Of a stretch of DNA of 64,000 nucleotides, positions 14,300 to 46,507 are shown one piece after another; within the stretch, counting starts at the first letter, position 1; each line of letters opens with the position of its first letter. Position numbers and translations under genes: made by a program. This DNA is from Jiangella asiatica. Its GTDB lineage: Bacteria > Actinomycetota > Actinomycetes > Jiangellales > Jiangellaceae. The notes under the pieces were generated by a model, which was given only the letters and a program-made list of their open reading frames with translations, did no database searches and was not told the origin of the DNA. The stretch spans positions 62,001 to 126,000 of the forward strand of contig NZ_SMKZ01000014.1 of NCBI RefSeq assembly GCF_004349065.1, given 5' to 3'.

Positions 14300-16642
14300 T
14301 CAGCCGGTCACGTTGCGACGGGTGCGAGCGTAGAGCACCGCGCCCAAACCGAGCAGAAGCAGCCCGGCCGCCATGACCAGCGAGTTGGTGGAGGCACCGG
14401 TGTCGGGCAGGTCCTCGCCGTCCTCGTCACCGTTCTCGTCGCCACCGTTCTCCTCACCACCGTCGTCGCCATTCTCGTCACCGGACGAGACGTCGATGGT
14501 GAAGTTGACCGGGCCGGCCTCCGGGGAGGTCACGCCGTTGATCGTCTGCACGGCGGTCACGGAGCACTCGCCGTTCGGCAGGCTCTCCTCCGGGGTGAAC
14601 GACCAAGCACCCTCCTCGTCGACCTCGGCGCTACCGGCCCAGGTGTCCTCGCCGCAGGCGATGGAGACCTCGACGGTGGCGCCCGGCACGCCCTCACCGC
14701 TGAAGGTGGGCGTCGCCGTGGTGGCGGTGTCACCCTCCTCCGGGCGGACGATGGTCGGCGCGTCGACCGGGACGACGACGGTGACCTCGGCGGTCTCCGG
14801 GACCTGGATGCTGCCGACGGTCTGCTGCGCGGTGATGGTGGTCTCACCGTAGGGCAGGTCGCCCTCGAGCACGATGCTCCAGGTGCCCTCGTCGTCCGTG
14901 GTGCCGGTGCCGACGGTGCCGTCACCGACGCTCAGGGTCACGGTCGAGCCGGGCTCCGCCGAGCCGGTCACCTCGACCGAGGACGGGTCGACCTCGTCGC
15001 CGTTCTCGGGCGAGATGATCGTGATCGGGTCGGCGTCGAACGCCGGCGCCGAACCGGTCAGCGCGTAGTTGCCCAGGCTGCCGTACGAGGTGTAGCCGGC
15101 GCCGTTGCTCGGCGTGTTCGAGGCCGGGTCGCCCTGGCCCGCGCCGCTGACGCGCACGGAGTAGACGCCGGTCTCGACCTCGGCCTCGACCGAGGCGCCC
15201 AGACCGTTGGCCTGGCGGTCGGTCGGCGAGCTGGCGATGTCGGTCGACGTCTCCGGGTTGGCCTCGGCGACGATGTTGCCCTCGGAGTCGATCAGCTCGA
15301 TGTGCAGGTCGACGTTCGGGCCGACGGTGGCCGGCTCGGCCGTGATGGAGACCGGGCCGCCGTTGGTGACCAGCTCGAACACGTCGCGCTCGTCGGTTGC
15401 ACCGATGACACCGGTGGCCTGGAAGTCGCCGCTGGAGTTGTCCAGAGCGGTGCCCTCACCGACCGAGTCCGAGTGGTCGTCGGCCGCATAGGCTGCGCGC
15501 CCGCCGTAGTAGAACTGCAGCGTCAACTCTTCACCGGGAGGGTTGCACGTCCCGTCCGGGCCGGGCTTGTAGACGGTGTCCCCCGGCTGCGGGTTGTTCG
15601 GGTCCTCGGCGTCGGTGCAGAAGCCCTCGAGCCACATCTGGTCGCCGTCGAACACCATGAACGACTGGTAGGCGCCGTCGGCGAGGGTGATCTCGGCGAG
15701 GTCGTCCTGCTCGGGGTTCGTGGTGTCGGCGTACTGGCCGTTGTCCCACTGCGACAGCGGCGCGGACCACGGCGCGCCCATGATCGGCGCCCACAGCGAG
15801 GTGGGCTCGGCCAGGGTGTCGCCGTAGTACTCGTCGTCGCCGATACCGTCGTGGTTGAGGTTGAACGTGTGGCCGACCTCGTGCGACACGATGTTGCCCA
15901 CGTCGGACGGGTTGCTGTCGCGCGCGACCGGGGCGAAGATCAGCGCCGGCGAGTAGAACTGGTTGCCGAAGCCGCCCAGCCACGCCCGGCCGCTGGCCTG
16001 GTCGGCCGGCGCCACGTCAGTGGTGTCGGTGACGACCGCTGTCATGCCGTACTCGGCGTCGTCCATCGACGTCTTGTGCAGTGCGTCCGCACCCGGGTCG
16101 GTGGTGGTGACGTTGATGTCGAACGGAGCGAAGTCCTCTGCGACCCGCGCCCACACCTGGTAGACGTAGTCGGCGTCCGAACCCGCGGCGTTCGCGTCGA
16201 ACTCGAACACGTCCTCCTGGTAGTACCGGTTCCACTCGGTGTTCGTGACAGTGGCACCGTCGAAGTCGAGGTAGACGGTGTACGGCGCGCCCGGCTTCGA
16301 GCCGCCCGCGGGGTCACCCGGGACGTCCGCGGCCGGTGCGAGGTCAGCCGCCTCGTGGTCGTGCTCGTCAGGAGCCTCGAAGCGGTCGGTGTAGGAGAGC
16401 ACGCCGGACTGGCCGACGATGGCCTGGTCGGAATCGACCAGCTCCTGCACCTCCTGCAGGCTGAGGTCGGCGCGGTCCGCGGCCGTCTCGAGCAATCGCT
16501 CGCTGGCAGCCGTGGCCTGCTCGACCAATTCGGGCAGATTGTCGGAGGCGCTGGCCGGCGACGCCGTGCCGGCGGCCGTGAGGGCCGCGACACCGGTGGT
16601 CGCCACCGCGGCCAGCAGCCGCCGTGGGGTTCTCGAACTCAT
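14300..16642 (-). CDS. Sortase-anchored metzincin-type zinc metalloprotease (LPDTG)
   Basis: This is a 780-residue secreted, cell-wall-anchored protein. It has a signal peptide (residues 1-33), a propeptide-like helical region, and a protease domain with HEVGHTFNLNHD at 254-265. That spacing is the HExxHxxNxxH zinc site of metzincins, and a following PIMGAPW fits the Met-turn. A PPC-like beta domain comes next (around DVFELVTNGGPVSITAEP), then two Ig-like repeats, a highly acidic Asp/Glu/Gly/Asn linker, LPDTG at 745-749, a membrane helix and a basic tail. It probably cuts extracellular proteins. The sortase gene is divergent and adjacent, an obvious enzyme-substrate pair. Confidence 0.88.
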   Translation of the reverse strand: MSSRTPRRLLAAVATTGVAALTAAGTASPASASDNLPELVEQATAASERLLETAADRADLSLQEVQELVDSDQAIVGQSGVLSYTDRFEAPDEHDHEAADLAPAADVPGDPAGGSKPGAPYTVYLDFDGATVTNTEWNRYYQEDVFEFDANAAGSDADYVYQVWARVAEDFAPFDINVTTTDPGADALHKTSMDDAEYGMTAVVTDTTDVAPADQASGRAWLGGFGNQFYSPALIFAPVARDSNPSDVGNIVSHEVGHTFNLNHDGIGDDEYYGDTLAEPTSLWAPIMGAPWSAPLSQWDNGQYADTTNPEQDDLAEITLADGAYQSFMVFDGDQMWLEGFCTDAEDPNNPQPGDTVYKPGPDGTCNPPGEELTLQFYYGGRAAYAADDHSDSVGEGTALDNSSGDFQATGVIGATDERDVFELVTNGGPVSITAEPATVGPNVDLHIELIDSEGNIVAEANPETSTDIASSPTDRQANGLGASVEAEVETGVYSVRVSGAGQGDPASNTPSNGAGYTSYGSLGNYALTGSAPAFDADPITIISPENGDEVDPSSVEVTGSAEPGSTVTLSVGDGTVGTGTTDDEGTWSIVLEGDLPYGETTITAQQTVGSIQVPETAEVTVVVPVDAPTIVRPEEGDTATTATPTFSGEGVPGATVEVSIACGEDTWAGSAEVDEEGAWSFTPEESLPNGECSVTAVQTINGVTSPEAGPVNFTIDVSSGDENGDDGGEENGGDENGDEDGEDLPDTGASTNSLVMAAGLLLLGLGAVLYARTRRNVTG

Positions 16643-16722
16643 TCGTCATATCTCCCGTGTTCTGGTGATCTCCAGCAGTCCGGACCCCGTCTGACGACGC
16701 GAACCGGACACACGCCCGCCGC

Positions 16723-16750
16723 ACGCTAGCAGATGTGACAGCCGAATCAA
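16723..16750 (-). promoter_or_regulatory. Candidate promoter of the metalloprotease
   Basis: On the minus strand TTGATT (16745-16750) and TAGCGT (16723-16728) are separated by 16 bp, about 80 bp upstream of the ATG at 16642. Confidence 0.4.
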
Positions 16751-16820
16751 CCGAATGGACAAGGGTTCGGACAAACGGTCCGGTCCCAGCCACCCTCGAC
16801 GGCCGGTTAGGCTCTTGGCC

Positions 16821-17633
16821 ATGCATCGCAAGGCGACCCGGGGGCGCCGTAGAGCCCCACGCCGGAGGAATGCTCCTCAGCACAGCGCGAACAACGCTCC
16901 CCAGCGCAGCGTGAACCAGGCTGCCGAGGGCGGCGTCAGGAATGCTCCGCAGCGCGGCGTGAAGAGTGCTCCCCAGCGCAGCGTCGCGGCACTGGTCGCC
17001 GGCGGCGTGGGCGAGTTCATGCTCACCGCGGGCGCCATCGTGCTGCTCTTCGTCGTCTATACGCTGTGGGGCACCGGCATCCAGACCGCCAACGCCCAGG
17101 ACGACCTGCGCGACCAGCTGGGGTTGGACACCGGCCAGCTGGAAAAGGACCCGATTCCGCTGGACCAGCTGGAGCTCGGCGACGCCTACGGCATCATCCG
17201 CATTCCCCGCTTCGGCGACGACTGGGAGTGGATCATCGTCCAGGGCACCGAGGACGGGGACCTCAAGAACGGCCCGGGCCACTACCTCGACAGCGTCGAC
17301 CCCGGCCAGCTCGGGAACTTCGCCATCGCCGCCCACCGTTCCGGTCACGGCGAACCGATGGCGGAGTTCCCGGAGCTCCGGGTCGGCGACGTCGTGGAGA
17401 TCGAGACCGCCACCGGTACGTTCGTCTACCAGCTGGACGATGCGCCGAACGGCGATCCCGACGGCAACAGAATCGACATCACCGAGACCTGGGTGGTGGA
17501 TCCGGTTCCTGGGGAACCGGAGGACACGAAGCCCACCGAGCGGCGCATTACGCTCACCACGTGCTGGCCACGCTGGGGCTCGTCACACCGTATGTACGCG
17601 ACCGGAGTCCTGATCGGCGGAGAGGAAGTCTAG
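16821..17633 (+). CDS. srtE: Class E sortase
   Basis: This 270-residue membrane-bound transpeptidase joins secreted proteins to the cell wall. It has a basic cytoplasmic N-terminus with five tandem 8-residue repeats (residues 17-56, type NAPQRSVN), a membrane helix around 62-82 and a sortase domain. Catalytic His172 lies in AAHRSGHG, Cys248 in TLTTCWP and Arg257 in SSHRMYA, the class E pattern. Class E enzymes usually prefer LAxTG, yet the neighbouring protease carries LPDTG. The ATG at 16821 is chosen; an in-frame ATG at 16755 would add 22 residues. A tiny membrane protein gene follows at once. Confidence 0.9.
   Translation: MHRKATRGRRRAPRRRNAPQHSANNAPQRSVNQAAEGGVRNAPQRGVKSAPQRSVAALVAGGVGEFMLTAGAIVLLFVVYTLWGTGIQTANAQDDLRDQLGLDTGQLEKDPIPLDQLELGDAYGIIRIPRFGDDWEWIIVQGTEDGDLKNGPGHYLDSVDPGQLGNFAIAAHRSGHGEPMAEFPELRVGDVVEIETATGTFVYQLDDAPNGDPDGNRIDITETWVVDPVPGEPEDTKPTERRITLTTCWPRWGSSHRMYATGVLIGGEEV
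16869..16988 (+). repeat. Five tandem 24-bp in-frame repeats in the sortase gene
   Basis: Five 24-bp units encode NAPQHSAN, NAPQRSVN, QAAEGGVR, NAPQRGVK and SAPQRSVA. Units 2 and 5 share a run of sixteen identical bases (GCTCCCCAGCGCAGCG), while unit 3 has diverged. The array encodes a basic, disordered cytoplasmic stretch ahead of the membrane helix. Confidence 0.9.
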
Positions 17634-17826: not shown

Positions 17827-18111
17827 TCAGCCGCCGGCGACCGCCGGGATGACGGACACCTTCGTGCCATCCGGCGTCGGCGTCGCGAGTCCGGAGGCGA
17901 ACCGGACGTCGTCGTCGTTCACGTAGACGTTGACGAAGCGCCGGATCTGGCCGGTGTCGTCGAGGACGCGCGCACCGATGCCCGGGAACTGCGCGTCCAG
18001 CGCGGCGAACACGTCGACGAGCGTGGCGTCGGCTGCGACCTCCACCGTGACGTCGGACTCGCCCTTGGTGTAGGTGCGCAGGATGGTTGGGACGCGTACC
18101 GCTACGCTCAT
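17827..18111 (-). CDS. MoaD/ThiS-family sulfur-carrier protein (CysO-like)
   Basis: The 94-residue ubiquitin-like protein ends in the Gly-Gly that is adenylated and thiocarboxylated in MoaD, ThiS and CysO. It begins MSVAVRVPTILRTYT, and FVNVYVNDDDVRF fits the central strands of the fold. It starts three bases after the threonine synthase stop codon and so is in one operon with thrC. In mycobacteria the related CysO supplies sulfur for cysteine synthesis with CysM and the protease Mec; neither is nearby, so a CysO role is likely but not shown. Confidence 0.85.
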   Translation of the reverse strand: MSVAVRVPTILRTYTKGESDVTVEVAADATLVDVFAALDAQFPGIGARVLDDTGQIRRFVNVYVNDDDVRFASGLATPTPDGTKVSVIPAVAGG

Positions 18112-18114
18112 GGC

Positions 18115-19359
18115 TCAGCCTCCGTTGACGAGGCGGTGGAACGCCTCGGTAGTGGGTTCGATCGTGCCAGCCGGGCCGACGACCGGCGAGACGGCGTCGA
18201 GCGTCTTGAGCCCGTCGCCGGTGTTGAAGACGACGGTCTCCGCCTCCGGGTCGAGCTTGCCCTCACGCAGCAGCTTCGCCAGGACGGCGACGGTCACCCC
18301 GCCGGCGGTCTCGGCGAAGATGCCCTCGGTGCGGGCCAGCAGCCGGATGCCCTCGACCACCTCGTCGTCGCTGACGTCCTCGACCGCGCCGCCGGTGCGC
18401 CGGGCGACGTCGAGCACGTACGGGCCGTCGGCGGGGTTGCCGATGGCCAGCGACTTGGCGATGGTGTCCGGACGCACCGGGCGGACGACGTCGTGGCCGG
18501 CTTTGAACGCCTCGGCCACCGGGGAGCAGCCGGTGGCCTGCGCTCCGAAAATGGCTGGCGCGTCACCCTCGACCAGGCCGAGCCGCACCAGCTCATGGAA
18601 CGCCTTGTCGACCTTGGTGAGCTGCGACCCGCTGGCGACGGGGATGACCACCTGGCGCGGAAGCCGCCAGCCCAGCTGCTCGACGGTCTCGTAGCCGAGG
18701 GTCTTGGAGCCCTCGGCGTAGTACGGGCGCACGTTGACGTTGACGAAGGCCCAATCGTCGTGCTCGCCGGCCAGCTCGGAGGCGAGCCGGTTGACGTCGT
18801 CGTAGTTGCCGTCGACGGCGACCAGCGTGGTGCCGTAGACGGCGCTGGTCACGATCTTGGGCTGCTCGAGGTTGCTGGGGATGAAGACGTAGCTGCGGAT
18901 GCCGGCGCGGGCAGCGGCCGCGGCGACAGCGTTGGCGAGGTTGCCGGTGGACGGACAGGCCAGCACCGTGAAGCCCAGCTCGCGGGCCGCCGCCAGCGCG
19001 ACCGCGACCACGCGGTCCTTGAAAGAATGCGTGGGGTTGGCGGCGTCGTTCTTGATCCACAGCGCTCGCAGCCCCAGCTCGCGGGCCAGGTTGTCCGCGC
19101 GGACCAGCGGCGTGAAGCCGGGGTCGGTGTTCGGGATCTCGGCTACGTCGGCCGGCACCGGCAACAGGTCGCGATAGCGCCAGATGGAGCGGGGCCCGCT
19201 CTCGATGCGCTCGCGGGTGATGGTGCCGTAGTCGTAGGCGACCTCCAGCGGGCCGAAGCACTCCAGGCAGGCGTAGTGCGGCCCGAGCTCCACGGTCGCG
19301 CCGCACTCACGACATGACAGGTGCGTAGCCCGCCCCAGGGAGGTGGTGGTGACAGTCAT
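18115..19359 (-). CDS. thrC: Threonine synthase
   Basis: The 414-residue PLP enzyme converts O-phosphohomoserine to threonine and phosphate. The N-terminus has a zinc-ribbon-like pair (LSCREC and YACLEC) found in one threonine synthase subgroup. SFKDRVV carries the PLP lysine, and TGNLANAVAAAAARAG forms the phosphate-binding region. ATG 19359 has an AAGGGA ribosome site. A SAM-I riboswitch fills the leader immediately upstream, so expression should respond to S-adenosylmethionine, the end product of the competing branch from homoserine. It is followed by the MoaD-like gene. Confidence 0.95.
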   Translation of the reverse strand: MTVTTTSLGRATHLSCRECGATVELGPHYACLECFGPLEVAYDYGTITRERIESGPRSIWRYRDLLPVPADVAEIPNTDPGFTPLVRADNLARELGLRALWIKNDAANPTHSFKDRVVAVALAAARELGFTVLACPSTGNLANAVAAAAARAGIRSYVFIPSNLEQPKIVTSAVYGTTLVAVDGNYDDVNRLASELAGEHDDWAFVNVNVRPYYAEGSKTLGYETVEQLGWRLPRQVVIPVASGSQLTKVDKAFHELVRLGLVEGDAPAIFGAQATGCSPVAEAFKAGHDVVRPVRPDTIAKSLAIGNPADGPYVLDVARRTGGAVEDVSDDEVVEGIRLLARTEGIFAETAGGVTVAVLAKLLREGKLDPEAETVVFNTGDGLKTLDAVSPVVGPAGTIEPTTEAFHRLVNGG

Positions 19360-19371
19360 GCGAGATCCCTT

Positions 19372-19480
19372 CTCATCTCTCCCACCGTGTTCCGGCGGGC
19401 CGGAATTGGCACCGTCGTCGCGCGTGCGCGGACGGTTGCCGGAGCTTCATCGGGCCGGTCCCTCAGCTCCTCTGGATGAG
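19372..19480 (-). ncRNA. SAM-I riboswitch (S-box leader) of thrC
   Basis: On the minus strand the leader starts CTCATCCAGAG and contains the conserved S-box blocks GAGGGACCGGCCC, GATGAAGCTCCGGCAACC and GGTGCCAATTCC. It closes with GATGAG that pairs with the first bases as P1 (19475-19480 with 19372-19377). The AAGGGA ribosome site lies directly after P1 and no terminator hairpin is seen, so control is probably at translation start. A small GAGAT/ATCTC pairing could place the ribosome site in a loop as the alternative structure. Confidence 0.92.
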
Positions 19481-19530
19481 GACAACTGCCAGTCACTTTA
19501 CGGTGCAAGCTTCGGCGCGAGCACCGACTG

Positions 19531-19592: not shown

Positions 19593-19975
19593 TCAGCTGG
19601 CCGGTTCCACATGGTCGGCCAGCCAAGACGCGAGGTCCGCCAGCTCCAGCCTTCCCTCGGCGACCGCGATCACGAAGTCGTACGCCTCGTCCTCATCAGG
19701 CGCCAGCAGGAACCCGTTGAGGGGTGAAAGTCGTAACAGGCCATCCAGCCCAGACGTTTCTCCCCGTCGATCAGGGCGTGGTTGCGGACCAGCGACTCCA
19801 GCATGGCAGCCGCCTTGGTGTGCAGATCCGGATAGGCCTCGGCCCCGAAGAGACTGGTTCGCGGCCGATGAACCGCCGCATCCAACAGACCGAGGTCCCG
19901 GACCTCCGGCCGTCGCCCGAGCGTGAGTCGGGCGATGTCGAGCACCTCCTCGAGCGTCAGGAATACCGTGCTCAT
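19593..19975 (-). pseudogene. Doc/Fic-family toxin, frameshifted
   Basis: The first frame gives the normal Doc start (VFLTLEEVLDIARL..., VRDLGLLDAAVHRPRTSLFG, NHALIDGEKRLGWMACY) and then runs into an unrelated tail stopping near 19676. From about 19740 the next frame continues the family pattern with LNGFLLAPDEDEAYDFVIAV and a plausible end at 19593, so one base appears to be lost. The catalytic HxxxDGNKR motif reads HALIDGEKR, with Glu in place of the expected Asn, which also points to inactivation. A sequencing error could explain the frameshift but not the Glu. Its start overlaps the antitoxin stop (ATGA). Confidence 0.8.
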
Positions 19976-20175
19976 TCGGCCAGGCGGGCCAGCAATCCCG
20001 CGTGCCGCTCGATGCCCTCGCGAGTGATCTCCTCGATATGACGGGATCGCTCGGCTCGCCCGATGTGTTCCCGGATGGCCAATCGGGCCTCTTCTTGCAT
20101 GGATCTGTGCTCGCGCTCGGCCTGCCGGCGCAGCGCCTCGGTCTCTTCCTCGGTGAGTCGCAGAGTCATCGCCAT
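19972..20175 (-). CDS. Ribbon-helix-helix antitoxin of the Doc module
   Basis: This 67-residue protein begins MAMTLRLTEEETEALRRQA, the beta strand and first helix of a CopG-type ribbon-helix-helix DNA-binding fold, followed by a charged helix that probably wraps the toxin. It overlaps the Doc-like gene by four bases, the usual antitoxin-first arrangement. Because the toxin appears broken, the antitoxin may persist as a repressor or anti-addiction remnant. Confidence 0.8.
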   Translation of the reverse strand: MAMTLRLTEEETEALRRQAEREHRSMQEEARLAIREHIGRAERSRHIEEITREGIERHAGLLARLAE

Positions 20176-20239
20176 GGCTCGGTGATACCGCCGCGATACC
20201 ACGCTCGCTAGCGCGCGGCCGGCGCGCCGGATGGAGGGC

Positions 20240-45280: not shown

Positions 45281-45385
45281 GTCTCGTAACACCCGCAACC
45301 CAGTGGAAACCTGCGGGACAACTGAATACCCCGTCCACTTCACTACGGATCGTCCGGCACGTACCTGCCGGTGAAGGGAAGCACG

Positions 45386-46507
45386 ATGGCCACGGTCACG
45401 TACGACAAGGCAACCCGGATCTACCCGGGAACCGACAAGCCAGCGGTCGACAGTCTCGATCTCGCCATCGAGGACGGGGAGTTCCTGGTCCTCGTCGGCC
45501 CGTCCGGCTGCGGGAAGTCCACCAGCCTTCGCATGCTCGCCGGCCTCGAAGAGGTCGACGGCGGCTCCATCCGCATCGGTGACCGCGACGTCACGCACAT
45601 GCCGCCGAAGGACCGCGACATCGCGATGGTGTTCCAGAACTACGCGCTTTACCCGCACATGTCGGTCGCCGACAACATGGGTTTTGCCCTGAAGATCGCC
45701 GGCACGCCGAAGGACGAGATCCGCCGCCGCGTCGGTGACGCCGCCAAGCTGCTCGACCTGGCCGAGTACCTCGACCGCAAGCCGAAGGCCCTCTCCGGTG
45801 GCCAGCGGCAGCGCGTCGCCATGGGCCGGGCCATCGTGCGTGAGCCGCAGGTGTTCCTCATGGACGAGCCGCTGTCCAACCTGGACGCCAAGCTGCGCGT
45901 GTCCACGCGCACCCAGATCGCCTCGCTGCAGCGCCGGCTGGGCATCACCACCGTCTACGTCACGCACGACCAGGTAGAGGCCATGACCATGGGCGACCGC
46001 GTGGCCGTGCTCAAGGACGGCCTGCTGCAGCAGGTCGACAGCCCGCTGGGCCTGTACGACAAGCCGGCCAACGTGTTCGTCGCCGGCTTCATCGGCTCGC
46101 CGGCCATGAACATCGCGACCTTCGACGTCGCCGACGGCCGTGCCAAGCTCGGTGACGCCGACGTTGCGATCCCCAGCTCCATCAGTTCGCAGGTGGCCGC
46201 GGAGGGGTCCTCGACGGTCACCCTCGGCATCCGGCCGGAGTCGCTGATCCCGGCGTCGAGCGAGGACACCGGCGGCATCCCGGTGCTGGTGGACGTCGTC
46301 GAGGAGCTCGGCTCCGACGCCTACGTCTACGGCCGGCCCGCCGGCCCGGAGGCCGAGCAGCAGACCGAGAGGCTGCGCAGCGACCAGATCATCGCCCGCG
46401 TCGAGCCGCGCAACGCCCCGCAGAAGGGCGAGAAGATCACCTTCACGGTCCGGCCTGGCAGCGAGCACTTCTTCTCGGTCAAGACCGGGGAGCGTCTCGA
46501 CGCCTGA
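45386..46507 (+). CDS. msiK: ABC transporter ATP-binding protein, MsiK/UgpC type
   Basis: The 373-residue ATPase energises sugar import. Walker A is GPSGCGKST, the Q-loop lies in [13 protein letters not shown], the signature is [15 protein letters not shown], Walker B is [13 protein letters not shown] and the switch His is in [12 protein letters not shown]-terminal TOBE/OB domain (from about residue 240) marks the maltose/sn-glycerol-phosphate class. No permease or binding-protein genes are nearby. In Streptomyces a single orphan ATPase, MsiK, serves many sugar importers, and this gene fits that role. ATG 45386 has GAAGGGA upstream. CRP-like and LacI neighbours suggest carbon control. Confidence 0.92.

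What the first reader, a model, noticed from the sequence alone, without database searches (positions are those of the whole stretch)
19372..19480. SAM-I riboswitch controlling threonine synthase
A textbook S-box leader stands directly before thrC, whereas these switches are best known on methionine and cysteine genes. Threonine and methionine compete for homoserine-derived precursors, so SAM would gate the competing branch. No terminator is visible and P1 abuts the ribosome site, pointing to translational control. The direction of the response is not fixed by the sequence.
Basis: partly seen in the sequence, partly recalled or inferred. Interest (0 to 1): 0.6.

Follow-up and report, generated by a model that had tools for sequence, protein, structure and literature searches.

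The report
SAM riboswitch on misnamed methionine gene
A real S-adenosylmethionine-sensing RNA switch sits in front of a gene that looks like threonine synthase but is most likely a methionine-making enzyme, so the arrangement is ordinary feedback control already described in related bacteria.

Summary
The riboswitch is real: Rfam SAM (RF00162), 85.1 bits against a cut-off of 44.4, minus strand 19482-19370, ending 10 nt before the next start codon. Its target is misidentified. The "thrC" at 19359-18115 is a second paralogue; the same genome (Jiangella, judged by nearest relatives) has a separate hom-thrC-thrB operon with the orthodox enzyme. The window gene lacks the orthodox GNAGN loop and is followed 3 nt later by a ThiS-like sulfur carrier ending in GG. 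That is the anatomy of metM-metO, which makes homocysteine from O-phosphohomoserine. A SAM riboswitch before metM of Streptomyces albulus is in print (PMC12172450), and S. lividans has a SAM leader labelled "threonine biosynthesis" (PMC8079986). In 197 genomes of the class, 136 of 145 SAM-I hits precede metM; none of the seven others with readable neighbours precedes thrC. The Shine-Dalgarno sequence begins inside P1, so SAM should shut off translation. Solirubrobacterales-side relatives mostly carry a terminator instead (32 of 42, against 0 of 30 on the window's side), pointing to an OFF switch. Ordinary methionine feedback; new member of a known kind.

The parts
19370..19482 (-). SAM-I (S-box) riboswitch aptamer, RF00162
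   Evidence: 85.1 bits, gathering score 44.4, full-length match; only one in the genome; upstream of the homologous gene in 72 of 80 relatives
19367..19372 (-). Shine-Dalgarno-like GAAGGG, first three bases inside the 3' strand of P1, 7 nt before the ATG
   Evidence: Sequence and script; in 85 of 89 leaders of the window's side an SD and start codon lie within 25 nt of the P1 end
18115..19359 (-). metM-like gene (414 aa, PLP enzyme, automatically called threonine synthase thrC); proposed homocysteine synthase using O-phosphohomoserine
   Evidence: PF00291; TIGR00260 280.1 bits; paralogue of the hom-thrC-thrB enzyme on contig C57; 37% identical to it; motif differences
17827..18111 (-). metO-like gene (94 aa), ubiquitin-like sulfur carrier ending in GG, 3 nt after metM
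   Evidence: PF02597 ThiS 53.0 bits; NF041918 SAMP1 61.6 bits, cut-off 60; homologue downstream in 72 of 80 relatives

Best explanation
A SAM-I riboswitch in the leader of a metM-metO operon gives ordinary end-product control of methionine synthesis. When SAM is plentiful the aptamer binds it and P1 closes; because the Shine-Dalgarno sequence begins in the 3' strand of P1, ribosomes are kept off and MetM/MetO synthesis falls. When SAM is scarce P1 opens and the site is exposed. MetM is expected to take O-phosphohomoserine, the substrate of threonine synthase too, and with sulfur from thiocarboxylated MetO turn it into homocysteine. Shown here: the aptamer, its position, the paralogy, the sulfur-carrier neighbour, the conservation of the arrangement and the SD/P1 overlap. 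Inferred: ligand binding, the OFF direction and translational mode in this species, and the reaction (by resemblance to the published S. albulus pair, whose paper I know by recall and through a citing paper).
For: Aptamer: only one in the genome. Second, orthodox copy in hom-thrC-thrB on C57. M. tuberculosis ThrC 2d1f scores 421.8 bits with the C57 protein and 166.4 with the window protein. Motifs differ. Sulfur carrier with C-terminal GG 3 nt downstream; homologue in 72 of 80 relatives. MoeZ-like activating enzyme in the genome. No MetA match and no full-length MetX match (weak control). SAM-I upstream in 72 of 80 relatives. In 197 genomes of the class 134 of 145 SAM-I hits precede a metM homologue, two more precede a metM cut by a contig end. 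SD and start within 25 nt of P1 in 85 of 89 leaders. Terminator with rival antiterminator pairing in Solirubrobacterales-side relatives. SAM riboswitch on S. albulus metM in print: PMC12172450.
Against: The window protein passes the threonine synthase model TIGR00260, so activity is not settled by sequence. I could not compare it directly with the S. albulus MetM. The genome also has a cystathionine gamma-synthase-like gene (664.5 bits against 513 for NF005871), so MetM may not be the only homocysteine route. Eight of 80 relatives have no metO-like gene next door, seven of 80 (Chloroflexi records) have no SAM-I. PMC12172450 reports threonine synthase and threonine deaminase activity, and no clear MetM role in cells, for a Microcystis homologue (passages). 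The free single-sequence fold of the window leader does not contain P1 and is 4.4 kcal/mol more stable than with P1 forced, though SAM binding is not modelled.
Confidence: 0.88

Rival explanations
1. One reading: the gene is a true threonine synthase, and SAM gates the threonine branch because it competes with methionine for homoserine-derived precursors.
For: TIGR00260 280.1 bits, cut-off 167.1. The 2021 S. lividans reannotation files a SAM leader under threonine biosynthesis (PMC8079986).
Against: A separate orthodox ThrC in hom-thrC-thrB; different active-site motifs; sulfur-carrier neighbour; no SAM-I hit before thrC among the seven non-metM hits with readable neighbours in 197 genomes.
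Confidence: 0.05
2. The switch acts on metM but by ending transcription (intrinsic or Rho-dependent), not by hiding the ribosome site.
For: Solirubrobacterales-side relatives of the same aptamer-gene pair carry terminator-like hairpins in 32 of 42 leaders.
Against: No terminator-like site in the window leader and 0 of 30 in L016-L045; SD and start within 25 nt of P1 in 85 of 89 leaders. Rho dependence was not testable.
Confidence: 0.12
3. The enzyme is bifunctional, making both homocysteine and some threonine (or deaminating threonine), and the switch matters for both branches.
For: A Microcystis homologue described as a possible MetM shows threonine synthase and deaminase activity in vitro (PMC12172450, passages).
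Against: Orthodox ThrC present in this genome and in 188 of 197 genomes of the class at E <= 1e-80, so threonine synthesis by metM is not needed.
Confidence: 0.1

Closest known systems
SAM riboswitch - metM - metO of Streptomyces albulus (Hasebe et al. 2024, Appl Environ Microbiol 90:e01247-24; paper not held, known by recall and through PMC12172450)
   Same: SAM riboswitch before a threonine-synthase-like gene with a sulfur-carrier gene downstream (riboswitch: PMC12172450; gene order: recalled).
   Different: Another genus (Jiangella). Sequences could not be compared directly; platform details of S. albulus not seen.
S. lividans TK24 SAM (S box) leader before SLIV_16930-SLIV_16925 (PMC8079986, Table 3)
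   Same: RF00162 before a gene pair called threonine biosynthesis. That the pair is metM-metO is my inference.
   Different: The authors file it under threonine; platform not described in the passages seen.
Translational SAM-I switch of Xanthomonas campestris met operon (PMC7270179, abstract and passages)
   Same: SAM-I acting mainly on translation of methionine genes.
   Different: There the SD and AUG lie in a separate platform hairpin that also senses initiator tRNA; here the SD begins in P1 itself and no tRNA element was looked for.
CysO-CysM of Mycobacterium tuberculosis (recalled)
   Same: A PLP synthase paired with a ubiquitin-like sulfur carrier activated by MoeZ.
   Different: Makes cysteine from O-phosphoserine; the PLP enzyme belongs to another subfamily (cysteine synthase B 3dwg scores only 26.3 bits with the window protein).

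Membership tests
SAM-I (S-box) riboswitch, RF00162 | Covariance score above the family's gathering score, full-length model | tested here: met
   85.1 bits against 44.4, positions 1-108 of 108
SAM-I (S-box) riboswitch, RF00162 | Lies in the 5' leader of a sulfur-metabolism gene, same strand | tested here: met
   Ends 10 nt before the start codon, same strand; gene identity as metM is inferred
SAM-I (S-box) riboswitch, RF00162 | Binds SAM and changes structure | not testable with these tools
   Needs in-line probing or a reporter
MetM (homocysteine synthase from O-phosphohomoserine) | Threonine-synthase homologue distinct from the orthodox ThrC of the same genome | tested here: met
MetM (homocysteine synthase from O-phosphohomoserine) | Partner sulfur-carrier gene metO downstream | tested here: met
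   ThiS-family gene 3 nt downstream; 72 of 80 relatives
MetM (homocysteine synthase from O-phosphohomoserine) | Close sequence match to the characterised S. albulus enzyme | not tested
MetM (homocysteine synthase from O-phosphohomoserine) | Converts O-phosphohomoserine and thiocarboxylated MetO to homocysteine | not testable with these tools
   Needs enzyme assay
MetO (sulfur carrier) | Ubiquitin-like ThiS fold family and C-terminal GlyGly | tested here: met
   PF02597 53.0 bits; sequence ends ...PAVAGG
Threonine synthase ThrC (orthodox, hom-thrC-thrB) | Score above the threonine synthase model | tested here: met
   TIGR00260 280.1 against 167.1 bits; but NF006050 295.9 against 303, just below
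Threonine synthase ThrC (orthodox, hom-thrC-thrB) | Neighbour of hom and thrB in the usual operon | tested here: not met
   That operon is on contig C57 with the other copy
Threonine synthase ThrC (orthodox, hom-thrC-thrB) | NPTGSFKDRG and GNAGN motifs seen in solved bacterial ThrCs | tested here: not met
   Window has NPTHSFKDRV and VASGSQ

The most novel reading that the evidence does not exclude
One aptamer-gene pair, SAM-I on metM, has changed its output device within one phylum. On the window's side the SD begins in P1 and a CCUC-type box just after it could pair with the P1 3' strand, holding the SD in a loop when SAM is absent; on the Solirubrobacterales side a terminator with a co-varying antiterminator does the work.
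Probability: 0.5. Interest if true: 0.35.

Novelty: new member of a known kind. Interest (0 to 1): 0.17.

Why it matters
It removes an apparent oddity (SAM switching threonine synthesis) in favour of plain methionine feedback. It also suggests that many actinobacterial genes labelled threonine synthase can be told as metM by three cheap signs: a SAM-I leader, a sulfur-carrier neighbour, and ASG[SA] in place of GNAGN. Two output devices on one aptamer-gene pair are a modest, testable case of platform turnover.

Tried and rejected
Threonine-branch gating was rejected on paralogy, motifs and neighbours. Chance match was rejected: 85.1 bits and SAM-I before 72 of 80 relatives.

Anti-P1 hairpin (P1 3' strand pairing with a CCUC-like box after the SD): of 66 distinct leaders 55 have a helix of 4 or more pairs against 35.9 expected when the segment after the SD is shuffled, 41 have 5 or more. 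A modest excess in related sequences, kept only in the novel case. In the window GAGA...UCUC could form it (free fold), but the six other named Jiangella leaders lack UCUC.

Single-sequence folding of 203 nt is suggestive, not decisive. The free minimum (-84.2 kcal/mol) has no P1; with P1 forced the minimum is -79.8. The GGG of the SD has unpaired probability 0.82-0.99 in the free fold and 0.23-0.35 with P1 forced; the two A bases of GAAGGG stay unpaired (0.96-1.0) with P1 forced. SAM binding is not modelled.

Start codons picked were implausible for five leaders (L040, L042, L043, L044, L066; start inside P1). One search used another rule and still missed four of 89 (L099, L101, L177, L178); L177 and L178 come from genomes where the SAM-I hit lies 284-297 nt from metM. 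In one search, 14 minus-strand loci were printed in the wrong orientation, corrected. In one search one of three ThrC rows (L138) was in a wrong frame and is not used. The first metO count (48 of 80) demanded an exact GG end; one search replaced it. The MetX control rang in 9 of 14 genomes but over the cut-off in none, so absence of MetX rests on a best score of 24.9 bits over 62 positions. No shuffle control was run for the antiterminator helices. The match lists are capped, so I did not cross SAM-I places with ThrC places; 'not before thrC' rests on reading the neighbours. No tree was built and no structure predicted.

Full report
Observation. The Rfam SAM model matches window 19482-19370 on the minus strand, full length, 85.1 bits against a gathering score of 44.4. 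It is the only such match in the 7.03 Mb genome. The next gene on the same strand starts at 19359. The finding is right in place to 2 nt; the strand, which it did not give, is minus.

What the gene is. Family models call 19359-18115 threonine synthase (TIGR00260 280.1 bits, cut-off 167.1). But the genome holds another match of like score on contig C57 (284.4 against 280.7 bits), standing between a homoserine dehydrogenase and a homoserine kinase: the usual hom-thrC-thrB operon. Against solved structures the C57 protein matches Mycobacterium tuberculosis threonine synthase 2d1f at 421.8 bits, the window protein at 166.4. The two are 37% identical over 350 columns. In 80 relatives of the window protein the lysine motif is NPT[HN]SFKDRV in 80 of 80, and the loop read PVASGSQLTK in the window is of ASG[SA] type in the six commonest variants printed (72 of 80; the rest not shown). 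The genome's own ThrC and a congener's have NPTGSFKDRG and PVGNAGNISA (a third ThrC row was mis-framed and dropped), and four solved bacterial ThrCs are of the same type (1uim, 2zsj, 6cgq, 2d1f). That the GNAGN loop holds the PLP phosphate is recalled. The window protein also has an N-terminal CxxC...CxxC stretch that its own ThrC lacks.

The partner. Three bases after the stop lies a 94-aa ThiS-family protein ending in PAVAGG. A homologue lies downstream in 72 of 80 related loci: 65 within about 100 nt and seven, all Chloroflexi records, about 370 nt away. The eight without one are L028, L029, L038, L039, L042, L045, L067 and L071; L038 and L039 have under 800 bases left after metM. The genomes of L071 (Conexibacter) and L045 (Micromonospora) have 3 and 5 ThiS-family matches elsewhere, so the carrier may be unlinked. 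The window's genome has a MoeZ-like activating enzyme (a 232-aa piece was tested). It has no MetA match and no full-length MetX match (weak control), but it does have a cystathionine gamma-synthase-like gene. This is the anatomy of metM-metO, a pathway that makes homocysteine from O-phosphohomoserine with a thiocarboxylated carrier. The original paper (Hasebe et al. 2024) is not held; its content is recalled and taken from passages of PMC12172450. That paper says that metM of Streptomyces albulus has an upstream SAM riboswitch, that the Microcystis homologue lacks one, and that the latter shows threonine synthase and deaminase activity without a clear methionine role in cells, which speaks for caution.

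How general. A scan of genome contigs found 97 relatives, of which the best 80 were kept: Jiangella, Haloactinopolyspora, Mumia, Nocardioides, Streptosporangiales, Micromonospora, Solirubrobacterales and Chloroflexi records, among others. The nearest six named isolates are Jiangella (93-94%). SAM-I stands upstream in 72 of 80 (20, 19, 20 and 13 of 20 each). The misses are L048, whose contig starts 112 bases before the match, and the seven Chloroflexi/Dehalococcoidia records. In 197 genomes of the class drawn by the tool there are 145 SAM-I hits in 140 genomes, three of them below the cut-off. Of the 145, 134 lie before a metM homologue of at least 64% identity, 131 of them within 150 nt, and two more before a metM-like frame cut by the contig end. 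Of the other nine, two are at contig ends; the seven readable ones precede ABC transporter genes (two), GNAT-like genes (two), a peroxiredoxin-like gene, an oxygenase-like gene and, for one hit below the cut-off, an acetyl-CoA-synthetase-like gene. These names are my reading of the translations; none is thrC. Conversely 134 of 136 such metM genes have SAM-I; the two misses are partial matches, one starting at the contig's third base. Orthodox ThrC was found in 188 of the 197 genomes.

How it works. In the window the SD-like GAAGGG begins in the last three bases of P1 and lies 7 nt before the ATG. In 85 of 89 leaders (the window, L016-L045 and 58 loci of the class survey; some near-identical) an SD and start codon lie within 25 nt of the end of P1, and in 51 of the 85 the SD picked overlaps P1. 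No terminator-like site is found in the window nor in 30 leaders from L016-L045 (0 of 30). In contrast, 32 of 42 leaders from L046-L089, mostly Solirubrobacterales by title, have a terminator-like hairpin with a T tract (0.48 expected from shuffles). In 27 of these 32 the P1 3' strand can form a helix of at least 5 pairs with the terminator's 5' arm or loop, and the strands vary together (TGTGGGG with CCCCACA, TGTGAGTGG with CTGCTCACA, TGCGAGTGG with CTGCTCGCA). So P1 formation and the terminator's rival exclude each other, as in known S-box attenuators (recalled): SAM closes P1 and lets the terminator form, an OFF switch. By orthology the window's switch should be OFF too, by masking the ribosome site. 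Single-sequence folding agrees in part: the SD's GGG is unpaired at 0.82-0.99 in the free fold and 0.23-0.35 with P1 forced, but the free minimum lacks P1. Ligand binding and response are not shown.

Literature. A 2021 reannotation of S. lividans lists RF00162 before SLIV_16930-SLIV_16925 under 'Threonine biosynthesis' in a table of elements checked with RNA-seq, of which 21 of 22 were found transcribed (PMC8079986, passages). PMC4365011 (passages) says that streptomycetes lack a SAM riboswitch on metE, metH and metK. A translational SAM-I switch on methionine genes is known in Xanthomonas (PMC7270179, abstract and passages). A survey notes a tendency to translational riboswitches in Actinomycetota (PMC12452182, passages). 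Listings searched for closer work. I did not see the terminator/translational split on metM in these, but the key paper could not be read.

Verdict. A real riboswitch and a known arrangement in another genus; the threonine link is most likely an annotation error. Interest is low; the platform split is the only mildly new point.

Noticed in passing
window 19670-20178 (-): A Doc/Fic-family gene (PF02661, 40.4 bits) with a ribbon-helix-helix antitoxin-like frame beside it (PF22513, 23.6 bits, below its cut-off of 27), just upstream of the riboswitch. By eye the end of the Doc-like frame looks frame-shifted; not tested.
   Followed up: no
window 45328-45386 (+): msiK RNA motif (RF01747, 58.7 bits, gathering score 33), a known actinobacterial leader element.
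   Followed up: no
window 14300-17633: A 780-aa protein with metallopeptidase, Ig-like and LPXTG anchor matches beside a sortase-domain gene on the other strand.
   Followed up: no
L085 3594-3836 (+); similar spacing in L090-L095: In the Chloroflexi record L085 an 80-aa NIL-domain protein (PF09383, 50.2 bits) lies between metM and metO; the other six Chloroflexi loci have a like gap of 363-388 nt but were not examined. These loci have no SAM-I.
   Followed up: partly
metO homologues in e.g. L025, L026, L030, L063, L069, L085: Several MetO homologues carry extra residues (C, R, A, E and others) after the GlyGly, which would need trimming before sulfur can be loaded.
   Followed up: no
L141 and L145: In two genomes of the class SAM-I precedes an ABC transporter set (ATPase, binding protein, permease) rather than metM.
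   Followed up: no
G000:C134:115356-115954 (L182): The window's genome has a second ThiS-like gene 42 nt before a weak PLP-enzyme match, a possible CysO-CysM pair.
   Followed up: no
L045, L067, L071 and others: SAM-I-controlled metM genes without a metO-like gene next door; two of the genomes have ThiS-family genes elsewhere.
   Followed up: partly
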